NCBI GenBank assembly: GCA_016839705.1
Contig: JAEOTR010000014.1
Coordinates: forward strand, 1 to 64,000
Length of the DNA: 64,000 nt
Direction of reading: 5' to 3'
From: Promethearchaeota archaeon
GTDB lineage: Archaea > Asgardarchaeota > Lokiarchaeia > Sigyniarchaeales > SOKP01
Shown: piece after piece, positions 24,124 to 27,217 of the stretch
Position numbering within the stretch: the first letter of the stretch is position 1
Layout of the letters: each line of letters starts with the position of its first letter
The notes under the pieces: model-generated
Seen by the model: only the letters and a program-made list of their open reading frames with translations
Database searches by the model: none
What the model was told of the DNA's origin: nothing
Translations under genes and position numbers: made by a program

Positions 24124-24639
24124 TTGTTTATAAATTCAAAAAGAAAAAACTCTGACGAAAATAATATGCAGGAGATTAAAAAGAAGTGTGATTTTTTAAA
24201 GCACTTATTTGACATAATAAATGATGGCGCTACGGGATTTGAACTAGCTTATGAAGTTGAGAAAAATCTAGAAGTTAAAAGTTTAATTTATGATGGCATT
24301 TTGTTTTACAACACATTTATAGAAATTGGGAGTAAGAAATTTCTGGATGTTCCTGATAAAGTTAAAAAAGATTATCAATCTTTTAAAACAATTGAAGATA
24401 CTGAAAAATTTATATTTATGGTATGGTTAAAAGATACAATCACCACACTGGAGAAAAAAATCCAACCTAAAGAGGATTATGCGAAATTTGTTGAAGCTAA
24501 AAAGGCCCAAGAGATAAGGGAAGCTATGGAGAAATTACACAAAAGACTGACTCATTGTAAAAATTGTGGGGCACAGATTCGAAGTAAAAAACAATTATTA
24601 TGTGAGGGATGTGGAGAAATCCTTATGGAAGGTATTTAA
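24124..24639 (+). CDS. Helical protein with C-terminal zinc ribbon
   Basis: This 171-residue, charged, helical protein ends in a zinc ribbon with CKNCGAQ and CEGCGEI (four Cys within 145-167). The body (20-140) shows no recognised domain. I chose the TTG start because GGAGG lies five bases before it (24115-24119), one of the clearest Shine-Dalgarno sites in the window; an ATG at 24166 would remove 14 residues. A short overlapping upstream frame (24071-24133) ends nine bases inside the gene and may couple its translation. Function is unknown. Confidence 0.6.
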   Translation: MFINSKRKNSDENNMQEIKKKCDFLKHLFDIINDGATGFELAYEVEKNLEVKSLIYDGILFYNTFIEIGSKKFLDVPDKVKKDYQSFKTIEDTEKFIFMVWLKDTITTLEKKIQPKEDYAKFVEAKKAQEIREAMEKLHKRLTHCKNCGAQIRSKKQLLCEGCGEILMEGI

Positions 24640-24734: not shown

Positions 24735-26204
24735 TTAACTTTCAATCTTGGTACCACACCATTTACAGAACTTTTCTGTTTCTGTGAGTTTACTCCCACA
24801 CAATGAACAGGTTTTTGCGCTTGCGGGGGTTATTACATCAGAGCTTACAGTCTGTCTCCCTTCCACTTTCCCCCCACATTTAGGGCAAAATTTTGAATCA
24901 CTATGCAGTGTAGCACCGCAACGAATACAATTAAGTTCTGTGATTGGAGCTTTCTTGTATGGGGATCCTTTAGTCCCTTTAGCAGGCGTTTTCTCAGGTT
25001 CTTTAAGCTTGAGCTTTTTTTGACCTCTTCTTGAGACAACTGCTGCGATTATTACAATTGCAACGACTCCTAGGATAATCCAAAAGATCCATTGTATATC
25101 AATCCATCTCTCAGTAGAAGATTTCCCCGTATCATAACTCACATCGAAAGTAATGGTTGTAGATTCCTCGGGTGAATTCATTGGATCAAAATAAATGAAG
25201 AAATACCAATTTCCTGCTTTAGGAACATAAAAAGTTTCACCTAATATATCTTTTGTTTCATTTCTATGAAAATCCATTAGAGTGAAATCTACAACTCCAC
25301 TTTCTGTGAAATTTACGGTAAAGTCAACATCAACGCTTGTCCCCCCATCGTTATACCAAACCACATAATAGTCATTTGCACTCGGTATTGCTAGAGATCC
25401 TGTGTCGCCATTAGTATTTGGCTCATCTACATAAAAAGATGGTGAACCTCCTTGATCCCATAAATAAAGATCATTACCATCTCCAATGAAGAAATCTACT
25501 AGTCCAGATGTGTTAAAGACATAATCTATTGATGATCCGGGTCTTAAGAAAAACCAAAGGTATTCATATTCATTATTAAGGAGATTAATTGAACCGATTT
25601 CGGTGGTAAGGAAAGATCTCGTGGGTACAGATTCAAATGGACGATCATCAATACCAAAGTTTATATCAGCTATAGAAGATTGGATTCTATTAATCGTGAT
25701 GCCATTATCTTTTTCAATATATTCAAATTCATACCAGAATTCATTATAATACAATGTCTCTGTGGAACGATATGACACATTACCATTCACATCTGCATCG
25801 CTAAACGGGAACAAGAATGCAACACCTGCTATTGGAAGCAAAATTAGAGCTAAGGTGATTACAAGTACAACACCTCCACCAACATATACCGGAGAATAAT
25901 ACCAAGGACGATAATAATGTCCTGCCCACCATGGATTATACCACCAACGGTAATACCAAGGTCGATGGTACCACCACCAGGGTCTATAATATCTACGATG
26001 TGGTCTATATCCTCTGTGAGAATAAGGTCCGGATCTTGATGTTACTCGAGAAGCACCCGTCCTCCCAAATGGTCTCCCACTTGGTCTACCATAACCACTC
26101 CGACCTCCGAATCCACCACCGCGAAAACCACCACCTCTGAATCCACCTCCACCACCGCGAAAACCACCACCGCCTCGGAATCCACCTCCACCTCCTCTAG
26201 GCAT
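24735..26204 (-). CDS. Two-TM protein with Gly/Arg-rich N-terminus, outer beta domain and two zinc ribbons
   Basis: This 489-residue protein of unusual build opens with five FRGG-type repeats (1-50), then a Trp/Tyr/Arg/Pro-rich stretch (65-105), TM1 (about 108-134), a loop of about 235 residues with beta-rich Asp/Ser/Tyr sequence, TM2 (about 371-390), a basic linker, and two C4 zinc ribbons (Cys426/429/440/443 and 466/469/480/483). The strong positive charge puts both ends in the cytoplasm and the loop outside. RGG tracts in other proteins bind RNA or drive condensation; that use here is an inference. It starts two bases after the end of the CBS-domain membrane gene, so the two form one operon. 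No known family is recognised as a whole. Confidence 0.75.
   Translation of the reverse strand: MPRGGGGGFRGGGGFRGGGGGFRGGGFRGGGFGGRSGYGRPSGRPFGRTGASRVTSRSGPYSHRGYRPHRRYYRPWWWYHRPWYYRWWYNPWWAGHYYRPWYYSPVYVGGGVVLVITLALILLPIAGVAFLFPFSDADVNGNVSYRSTETLYYNEFWYEFEYIEKDNGITINRIQSSIADINFGIDDRPFESVPTRSFLTTEIGSINLLNNEYEYLWFFLRPGSSIDYVFNTSGLVDFFIGDGNDLYLWDQGGSPSFYVDEPNTNGDTGSLAIPSANDYYVVWYNDGGTSVDVDFTVNFTESGVVDFTLMDFHRNETKDILGETFYVPKAGNWYFFIYFDPMNSPEESTTITFDVSYDTGKSSTERWIDIQWIFWIILGVVAIVIIAAVVSRRGQKKLKLKEPEKTPAKGTKGSPYKKAPITELNCIRCGATLHSDSKFCPKCGGKVEGRQTVSSDVITPASAKTCSLCGSKLTETEKFCKWCGTKIES
26107..26204 (-). repeat. Tandem FRGGG-coding repeat
   Basis: Imperfect short repeats with the unit CCACCACCTCTGAATCCACC and variants encode the glycine/arginine-rich N-terminus of the membrane protein. 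The GC content is visibly higher than in the surroundings. Such tracts expand and contract readily, so length may differ between strains. Confidence 0.7.
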
Positions 26205-26206
26205 TT

Positions 26207-27217
26207 TTAACTTGCCACCTCTTTCTTCATAGATTCAACAGTTTCCTTTTCCCTAAAGATGTAATCTCTATTTATGGCTAGTAATACTAGAATCATTGAT
26301 AAAATTGACAATGTTAATCCAATGCTATCAATTGTTATAATAGGTTTAGGGATTGCAGTTGCAAAAGCAATACCAAACAAAATCCACTCAAAAACCATAA
26401 AGAACACAAAAAGTCCAGGAATTATTGTCCTCACAATTCTACCCGTTTGCAAGTTTCTGGTGTCAGAAAAGCTCACGTATATTATGGAGAACAAACAGAT
26501 TATTCCAAAAATCAATAAGAATATGCTAAATATCGCTATTACAATCCATATTGGATGGAGTCTGCCTATTTCAAGAAAAGGTGCTATTATACTTAAACTC
26601 CTAGCTTCAAACAAATAGTAGGTTACTTTTCCACCTCCAGTCAAAATAGACCCCAACAAGCTCCAAAGATCATCTGAACTCCCGGAAAAAAAGCCATATA
26701 CCCCAGTAAGTGGTAGAATAATACCCAAAGTAAATGCTAGTATAACACATACGCTAGCAAACCAAAATTCGGCAACCCTTGTATTTCTTACGGGAATTAA
26801 TCCAATTTCATCTACGTTCTGATCAGGTATGTAACTCCAACAATCTTGGATGGTACTTACTCCAATCAATTTTCCATTCTCAACTACAGGAACTACATTT
26901 ACATTTAAATCACGCATACGTGTAAATGCTTCCACAACTGGCGTGTTTAGGGATACAGGTGTAATATTATACATTGTACTAAGAATTTTCTCAGATTTTG
27001 AGTCTTTTCCTTCTGCTACAATATTCTGTACGATATCAATATCTGCGATAACACCAAGAACTTTTTGTGCCTCTCCTTCAACTACAACCAAATCTGGAAC
27101 CCCTAGTTCTTTCATTTTTTTAGCTGCTTCTTGAATTGTTGCTTTTGAGTCAATTATGCCATATTCATCATCGATGACAAGATCTTTTACAAAATATTCT
27201 TTTTTAGTTAATGTCAT
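26207..27217 (-). CDS. CBS-domain membrane protein, four TM segments
   Basis: This 336-residue protein has a tandem CBS pair in the first 135 residues (DIDIVQNIV in the first and VSTIQDCW closing the second), the module that usually senses adenine nucleotides or S-adenosyl compounds. Four hydrophobic segments follow (about 148-172, 222-250, 263-288 and 295-317). The membrane part has no recognised channel or transporter signature. The CBS pair would face the cytoplasm. It is the first gene of an operon with the Gly/Arg-rich zinc-ribbon membrane protein two bases downstream, so a shared complex that responds to nucleotide state is a reasonable inference. Confidence 0.8.
   Translation of the reverse strand: MTLTKKEYFVKDLVIDDEYGIIDSKATIQEAAKKMKELGVPDLVVVEGEAQKVLGVIADIDIVQNIVAEGKDSKSEKILSTMYNITPVSLNTPVVEAFTRMRDLNVNVVPVVENGKLIGVSTIQDCWSYIPDQNVDEIGLIPVRNTRVAEFWFASVCVILAFTLGIILPLTGVYGFFSGSSDDLWSLLGSILTGGGKVTYYLFEARSLSIIAPFLEIGRLHPIWIVIAIFSIFLLIFGIICLFSIIYVSFSDTRNLQTGRIVRTIIPGLFVFFMVFEWILFGIAFATAIPKPIITIDSIGLTLSILSMILVLLAINRDYIFREKETVESMKKEVAS

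What the first reader, a model, noticed from the sequence alone, without database searches (positions are those of the whole stretch)
24735..27217. Operon of a CBS-domain membrane protein and a Gly/Arg-rich, zinc-ribbon membrane protein
The two genes are two bases apart on the minus strand. One couples a nucleotide-sensing CBS pair to four TM helices. The other anchors an RGG-type low-complexity segment and two zinc ribbons at the inner face, with an outer beta-rich loop of about 235 residues between two TM helices. RGG plus zinc ribbons is typical of RNA- or protein-binding modules, so this could be a membrane-held RNA/condensate system under adenine-nucleotide control. I know no described system with this pairing.
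Basis: partly seen in the sequence, partly recalled or inferred. Interest (0 to 1): 0.6.

Follow-up and report, generated by a model that had tools for sequence, protein, structure and literature searches.

The report
Conserved Asgard two-protein membrane module
Two adjacent genes in an uncultured Asgard (Lokiarchaeia-type) archaeon encode membrane proteins that are inherited only as a pair across Lokiarchaeia and Hodarchaeales, apparently a nucleotide-sensing protein coupled to a surface protein whose outer part folds like eukaryotic Golgi "GOLD" domains; its job is unknown, which makes it a good target in the archaea closest to eukaryotes.

Summary
A (336 aa, CBS pair plus 4 TM helices) and B (489 aa; Arg/Gly tail, TM, 235-residue beta ectodomain, TM, double zinc ribbon) are 2 nt apart. 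In 228 genomes of the phylum, 60 carry both, always adjacent; the only lone copies (2 A, 1 B) sit at contig ends. The gap is 0-9 nt in 57 of 58 named loci, while flanking genes change. B's Shine-Dalgarno lies inside A's last codons. The Gly/Arg tail is no strain-specific insertion: all 41 aligned orthologues have it, and residues 1-111 hold 19 Arg, no Lys, no Asp/Glu in a Lys-rich genome. New: the ectodomain is predicted as tandem GOLD-like beta sandwiches (best PDB matches p24/TMED GOLD domains); it is homologous to Asgard paralogues of the same layout that score above Pfam's cut-off for the N-terminal domain of plant APD1-4 membrane E3 ligases; Hodarchaeal B adds a RING-like zinc domain. "RNA/condensate system" is neither shown nor excluded. 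Best reading: a nucleotide-gated transmembrane receptor/anchor complex. Undescribed as a pair; each part is of a known kind.

The parts
26207..27217 (-). gene A: CBS-pair, 4-TM membrane protein (336 aa)
   Evidence: ORF; CBS E=2.8e-13; orthologues in 62 of 228 phylum genomes
26813..27184 (-). A residues 12-135: CBS pair; G-x-x-[TS]-x-x-D motif in CBS2, D61 and D125 invariant
26270..26782 (-). A residues 146-316: four TM helices with a small beta-containing outer loop between TM1 and TM2
   Evidence: hydropathy, AF2
26216..26221 (-). Shine-Dalgarno GAGGTG of gene B, inside the last codons of gene A, 11 nt before the B start
   Evidence: sequence; a 5-nt or longer SD at this place in 56 of 58 loci
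24735..26204 (-). gene B: Arg/Gly tail, TM, GOLD-like ectodomain, TM, double zinc ribbon (489 aa)
26073..26204 (-). B residues 1-44: Gly/Arg/Phe low-complexity tail (5 RGG, no Lys/Asp/Glu)
26052..26078 (-). B residues 43-51: conserved motif GRPFGRTGA (P45 F46 G47 R48 T49 G50 invariant in 41 sequences)
25872..26051 (-). B residues 52-111: Arg/Tyr/Trp/Pro-rich juxtamembrane segment ending RPWYYSPVYVGGG
25815..25871 (-). B TM1 (residues 112-130)
25101..25802 (-). B ectodomain, residues 135-368; two GOLD-like beta sandwiches (nesting inferred)
   Evidence: AF2 pLDDT mostly >90; Foldseek GOLD hits
25287..25628 (-). B residues 193-306: inner GOLD-like domain D2 (boundaries inferred), fastest-evolving folded part; holds the weak APD1-4_N match
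25032..25088 (-). B TM2 (residues 373-391)
24747..24938 (-). B residues 423-486: double zinc ribbon, eight Cys invariant
   Evidence: DZR E=6.2e-10

Best explanation
A and B are the two subunits of one membrane complex. B is a two-span receptor/anchor: its GOLD-like ectodomain binds a partner outside the cell, while its cytosolic Arg/aromatic tail and double zinc ribbon hold an anionic partner (RNA/RNP or an acidic protein) at the inner face. A binds B through its four TM helices, and its cytosolic CBS pair binds an adenylate and tunes the complex according to energy state. SHOWN by sequence: obligate gene pairing, overlapping translation signals, domain layout, conservation of tail, zinc Cys and CBS site residues. 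PREDICTED: GOLD-like fold and topology. INFERRED: physical A-B contact, nucleotide control, and what the ectodomain and tail bind.
For: 60 genomes have both, always adjacent; lone copies only at contig ends. Gap 0-9 nt in 57/58 and no third gene conserved beside them in all loci. Absent together from some nearly complete genomes (e.g. G021, G022, G029). B's SD lies inside A's last codons. CBS2 motif and both site Asp invariant in 39/39. B N-terminal 111 residues: 1 Lys and 3 Asp/Glu in total over 41 orthologues against 9-26 Arg each, in a genome where Lys outnumbers Arg 2.3:1. Ectodomain matches p24/TMED GOLD domains (TM-score 0.69-0.85 on target, rmsd 1.7-2.4). The inner ectodomain D2 and A's outer loop ECL1 are among the most variable parts (pairwise identity 0.40 and 0.39) while the tail (0.76) and CBS1 (0.73) are the most conserved, as expected of a constant cytosolic output and a variable outer interface.
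Against: No A-B interface could be predicted (no multimer tool). Conserved operons can also reflect stoichiometric co-expression without direct contact. Nucleotide binding is inferred from a motif; CBS1 lacks the Thr/Ser (A58 in 34/39). The GOLD match is by fold, at about 12% identity, with no Pfam GOLD hit.
Confidence: 0.45

Rival explanations
1. Membrane-held RNA, RNP or ribosome tether under adenylate control: RGG tail and zinc ribbons bind RNA, and A gates it.
For: RGG repeats without Lys, Tyr/Trp-rich stickers; two archaeal ribosome-hibernation factors have CBS modules (HibA, Dri; PMC13324472), and the best PDB matches to A's CBS pair include ribosome-bound CBS proteins. PMC13324472 reports that HibA's CBS module binds AMP best.
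Against: The CBS matches are generic CBS similarity; A has one CBS pair, not four CBS repeats, and no HPF domain. RGG count falls to 1-3 in several orthologues (L107, L088, L090, L095) while Gly/Arg/aromatic composition stays. No RNA-binding domain; double zinc ribbons are generic.
Confidence: 0.2
2. A CBS-regulated transporter or channel: A's 4-TM domain is the pore (as CBS gates MgtE and CLC), with B as its accessory subunit.
For: CBS-to-TM fusions are commonly transporters (established knowledge of MgtE, CLC, CNNM); MgtE appears among the Foldseek hits.
Against: The MgtE hit is carried by the CBS part (rmsd 18 over the full alignment). The TM domain has no transporter family match and few conserved polar residues in the helices; standalone 4-TM relatives exist (weak).
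Confidence: 0.12
3. A membrane E3-ligase-like or ubiquitin-pathway scaffold: B is an archaeal cousin of eukaryotic APD1-4 (TM, ectodomain, TM, zinc domain).
For: Sub-threshold APD1-4_N matches in 26 of 41 orthologues, best E=1.6e-5; Asgard paralogues of the same layout pass the curated cut-off in three genomes; profile link B to paralogues E=8.9e-13; Hodarchaeal B carries a RING-like C-terminal zinc domain (zf-RING_4 E=0.0017; weak TRIM21 RING match E=0.04); the own genome has three UBC-type E2 domains over cut-off.
Against: The window protein has zinc ribbons, not a RING. All RING matches of the Hodarchaeal domain are below cut-off and its first ligand pair (C-x6-H) is atypical. Homology of the ectodomain does not transfer the ligase activity of another domain.
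Confidence: 0.1
4. A p24-like cargo or envelope-protein sorting receptor: the GOLD ectodomain recruits secreted or surface proteins, and the cytosolic parts recruit a coat-like machinery.
For: GOLD fold; GOLD domain fused through a TM linker to an adaptin-appendage region, in an archaeal system that also encodes Zn-ribbon proteins, is described in PMC10936438.
Against: No adaptin, ESCRT or coat gene is conserved next to the pair; no coiled coil or short cytosolic sorting tail as in p24; GOLD-like ectodomains are common in Asgard proteins of many layouts.
Confidence: 0.1

Closest known systems
GOLD domains of p24/TMED proteins and SEC14-like proteins
   Same: Predicted beta-sandwich fold of the ectodomain; TM-anchored (p24)
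   Different: Two GOLD-like units, two TM helices, zinc ribbons and an Arg-rich tail; about 12% identity, no Pfam GOLD match; a CBS partner gene
APD1-4 RING E3 ligases of plants (PF16040)
   Same: APD1-4_N-like ectodomain reached through Asgard paralogues; layout TM-ectodomain-TM-zinc domain (APD layout from general knowledge)
   Different: Double zinc ribbon instead of RING in Lokiarchaeia; Arg/Gly tail; CBS-4TM partner
Archaeal GOLD-TM-adaptin appendage proteins of the Meth_adaptin systems (PMC10936438)
   Same: Archaeal GOLD domain joined to a TM; Zn-ribbon proteins in the same system
   Different: There fused to adaptin appendage regions near an SPFH protein; here paired with CBS-4TM and no adaptin
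HibA and Dri archaeal ribosome hibernation factors (PMC13324472)
   Same: CBS repeats; archaeal
   Different: Soluble, four-CBS modules (two modules in Dri), HPF domain in HibA; A is a membrane protein with one CBS pair
CBS-regulated membrane proteins (MgtE, CLC)
   Same: Cytosolic CBS pair fused to TM helices
   Different: A's 4-TM domain is unrelated by sequence; obligate GOLD/zinc-ribbon partner

Membership tests
GOLD domain / p24 (TMED) family | GOLD beta-sandwich fold | tested here: met
   Foldseek: 7rrm, 5gu5, 5azw, TM-score 0.69-0.85 on target, prob 1.00; a model, not a solved structure
GOLD domain / p24 (TMED) family | Sequence match to the p24 family model | tested here: not met
   No p24 model among the Pfam matches listed for B or for the 41 ectodomains at E<=1
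GOLD domain / p24 (TMED) family | Single TM, coiled coil, short cytosolic sorting tail | tested here: not met
   Two TM segments, 98-residue zinc-ribbon tail
APD1-4 family | APD1-4_N domain above curated cut-off | tested here: inconclusive
   B members printed singly score 13-20 bits (cut-off 27), best member E=1.6e-5; paralogues of the same layout are above it
APD1-4 family | C-terminal RING finger | tested here: not met
   Window B has a double zinc ribbon; RING-like domain only in Hodarchaeal B, sub-threshold
CBS-domain regulators | CBS pair with adenosyl-site residues | tested here: met
   PF00571 50.4 bits; D61, D125 and [TS]122 conserved 39/39
CBS-domain regulators | Nucleotide binding | not testable with these tools
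   needs ITC
RGG-type RNA-binding proteins | Clustered RGG repeats, disordered | tested here: met
   5 RGG in 44 residues, pLDDT about 30 over residues 1-20; count varies from 1 to 7 among orthologues
RGG-type RNA-binding proteins | RNA binding | not testable with these tools
   needs EMSA or CLIP
HibA/Dri hibernation factors | Four-CBS module(s), HPF domain in HibA | tested here: not met
   one CBS pair and TM helices only

The most novel reading that the evidence does not exclude
An Asgard transmembrane organiser older than the split of Lokiarchaeia and Hodarchaeales: an adenylate-gated pair in which a GOLD-like outer receptor of the stock that also gave eukaryotic APD1-4 (and perhaps p24) ectodomains controls an Arg/Tyr-sticker tail at the inner membrane face, nucleating an RNP or ubiquitin-related assembly in answer to energy state.
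Probability: 0.12. Interest if true: 0.85.

Novelty: new variant of a known kind. Interest (0 to 1): 0.56.

Why it matters
A two-gene membrane module that is inherited as a unit across Lokiarchaeia and Hodarchaeales, with a GOLD-like ectodomain otherwise associated with the eukaryotic endomembrane system, is a concrete handle on how Asgard cells organise their membrane. No description of the pair was found in the open-access library searched. Both proteins are of moderate size and testable by co-purification, ITC and RNA-binding assays.

Tried and rejected
Strain-specific insertion for the Gly-rich part: rejected, present in all 41 aligned orthologues. Chance neighbours: rejected. Link to the purine and pyrimidine genes beside the pair in this window: rejected, those neighbours are not conserved. 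Ribosome hibernation membership: rejected on architecture; the PDB hits are generic CBS similarity. A-TM against the standalone Hodarchaeal 4-TM protein: weak, probability 26%. PDB search with the ectodomain profile: nothing. The genome-contig scan used the motif PFGRTGAxR as a seed, so conservation of that motif in those loci is partly by selection; the full-length search and the domain-only searches do not share that bias.

Full report
What is there. Gene A (26207-27217, minus) codes for 336 residues: a CBS pair (Pfam CBS, E=2.8e-13) followed by four TM helices. Gene B (24735-26204, minus) codes for 489 residues and starts two bases after A's stop. B has a Gly/Arg tail, an Arg/Tyr/Trp/Pro-rich stretch, TM1, a beta-rich ectodomain, TM2 and a double zinc ribbon (DZR E=6.2e-10). 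Charges fit both tails inside: +19/0 and +21/-9 against +11/-39 in the ectodomain.

The pair is a unit of selection. A search of 228 genomes of the phylum with A's TM domain alone, and a separate one with B's ectodomain alone, found strong matches in 62 and 61 genomes; 60 have both, on the same contig and adjacent (counted by hand from the tables). The lone copies (A in G161 and G037, B in G007) lie at contig ends, and so do two extra A copies. In the named-genome scan all 59 loci are from Asgard archaea (records titled Lokiarchaeota/Lokiarchaeia, Prometheoarchaeum, Harpocratesius, Hodarchaeota, Heimdallarchaeota). A lies directly upstream in 58 of them, the 59th being cut by the contig end, with a gap of 0-9 nt in 57; the exception, L106, has a broken A frame. 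No other gene family is found beside the pair in more than 30 of the 60 loci compared, the HAD hydrolase of this window being the commonest. Several nearly complete Loki genomes lack both genes.

Expression. B has a Shine-Dalgarno of five or more bases (mostly GAGGTG) 6-13 nt before its start in 56 of 58 loci, and because the gap is so short it lies inside A's last codons; it also explains the recurrent Glu-Val near A's C-terminus. A itself often has none (23 loci without even four bases). A leaderless first gene followed by an SD-led second gene is a common archaeal arrangement (established knowledge).

The tail. In 41 orthologues the segment before PFGRTG is 38-55 residues long, 29-61% Gly, with 4-10 Arg, 1-7 RGG and no Lys. 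Over the whole N-terminal part before TM1 the 41 proteins have 1 Lys and 3 Asp/Glu in total, against 9-26 Arg and 10-29 Tyr+Trp each; in the window's other proteins Lys outnumbers Arg 1404 to 607. On that background rate alone, 19 basic residues all being Arg has a probability of about 1e-10. Arg is therefore kept for its chemistry, as in Arg/Tyr sticker-type or RGG proteins. RGG spacing itself is not strictly kept (one RGG in L107, two in L088, L090, L095).

The ectodomain. AF2 on a 41-sequence alignment gives pLDDT mostly above 90 for residues 150-345. The best PDB matches are GOLD domains: TMED1 (7rrm), p24gamma2 (5gu5), p24beta1 (5azw, TM-score 0.80-0.85, rmsd 1.7-2.1) and SEC14-like proteins. 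From the order of strands and the repeated sequence pattern I infer two GOLD-like units, the inner one (about 193-306) inserted in the outer one; boundaries are inferred, because Foldseek did not print them. Pfam's APD1-4_N (N-terminal domain of plant APD1-4 E3 ligases) matches 26 of 41 members, best E=1.6e-5, with the singly printed ones all below the curated cut-off. Other Asgard proteins with the layout tail-TM-ectodomain-TM-zinc ribbon pass the cut-off (G050, 37.3 bits; G049; G037; in the protein-level scan two of the three pass), and their profile aligns to B's ectodomain with probability 97.8% and E=8.9e-13. So B's ectodomain is, through these, a distant relative of APD1-4_N. Similar ectodomains with one TM and often a zinc ribbon occur in other Asgard groups.

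The zinc part. Eight Cys are invariant in 41 sequences. Hodarchaeal B proteins (L097-L105) carry a further C-terminal domain, C-x6-H-x8-C-x2-C-x4-C-x2-C-x11-C-x2-C, resembling the second half of RING fingers (zf-RING_4 E=0.0017; TRIM21 RING E=0.04), all below cut-off. The own genome has three UBC-type E2 domains over the curated cut-off, so a ubiquitin pathway is likely to exist, but nothing ties B to it.

Gene A. CBS1 and CBS2 are the best conserved parts (pairwise identity 0.73 and 0.64). D61, D125 and W127 are invariant, and CBS2 keeps G-x-x-[TS]-x-x-D, the usual adenosyl-site signature (established knowledge of CBS domains). The TM domain has no known relative in Pfam or the PDB. Its outer loop is variable (0.39).

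How it probably works. The conserved inner parts (tail, CBS pair, zinc Cys) and variable outer parts (D2, A's outer loop) suggest a constant cytosolic output with a variable outside interface. I therefore favour one membrane complex: B receives or anchors something outside through its GOLD-like domains and holds an anionic partner inside, and A's CBS pair adjusts this to adenylate level. Pairing, layout and conservation are shown; fold and topology are predicted; contact, ligand and output are inferred.

Against what is known. B is not a p24 protein (no family match, two TMs, zinc ribbons) and not an APD1-4 protein (no RING), though its ectodomain resembles both. A is not a HibA/Dri factor (PMC13324472). 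PMC10936438 describes an archaeal GOLD-TM-adaptin appendage protein in a system that also encodes Zn-ribbon proteins, the nearest published layout found. The main text of the large Asgard survey PMC10307638 mentions neither GOLD, TMED nor CBS domain, and full-text searches found no paper on this pair; only open-access papers were searched.

Verdict. A real, previously undescribed (as far as could be searched) and strictly conserved two-gene membrane module of Asgard archaea, built from known kinds of parts.

Noticed in passing
L114:1350-2498(-), L115:1619-2767(+), L116:1407-2534(-), L117:1658-3469(+): Asgard proteins outside the pair with the layout tail-TM-APD1-4_N-like ectodomain-TM (zinc ribbon at the end in three); the APD1-4_N domain is above Pfam's cut-off in three genomes and below it in L117. 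Possible archaeal relatives of a eukaryotic membrane E3 family.
   Followed up: partly
L097, L098, L099, L100, L101, L103, L104, L105, last ~60 residues of B: Hodarchaeal B proteins end in an extra RING-like zinc domain (PDERxxFFCQLDxxxHPSxxSAYxCxQCSRxxCxxCY...CPYCKG) absent from Loki B; weak matches to TRIM21 RING and to ribosomal protein aS34.
   Followed up: partly
L153, L154, L155, L156, L157, L159: GOLD/PPC-like ectodomains with a TM, some with a C-terminal zinc ribbon, are widespread in other Asgard groups in many layouts; one (L159) is a long protein with several such repeats.
   Followed up: partly
L150:1320-1961(-), L151:1601-2191(+), L152:1513-2103(+): Standalone 4-TM proteins of about 200 aa, weakly related to A's TM domain (profile E 9e-9 to 2e-5), with a long first outer loop, without CBS.
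   Followed up: partly
L059 (JAUUVJ010000411.1) in a bin titled Hodarchaeota CSMAG_10: This contig carries a Loki-type pair (67-69% identical to the window) beside a second, Hodarchaeal pair (L101) in the same bin; probably bin contamination.
   Followed up: no
window 24124-24639 (+): A 171-aa protein with a C-terminal CxxC...CxxC zinc ribbon, converging on gene B; no confident family match.
   Followed up: no
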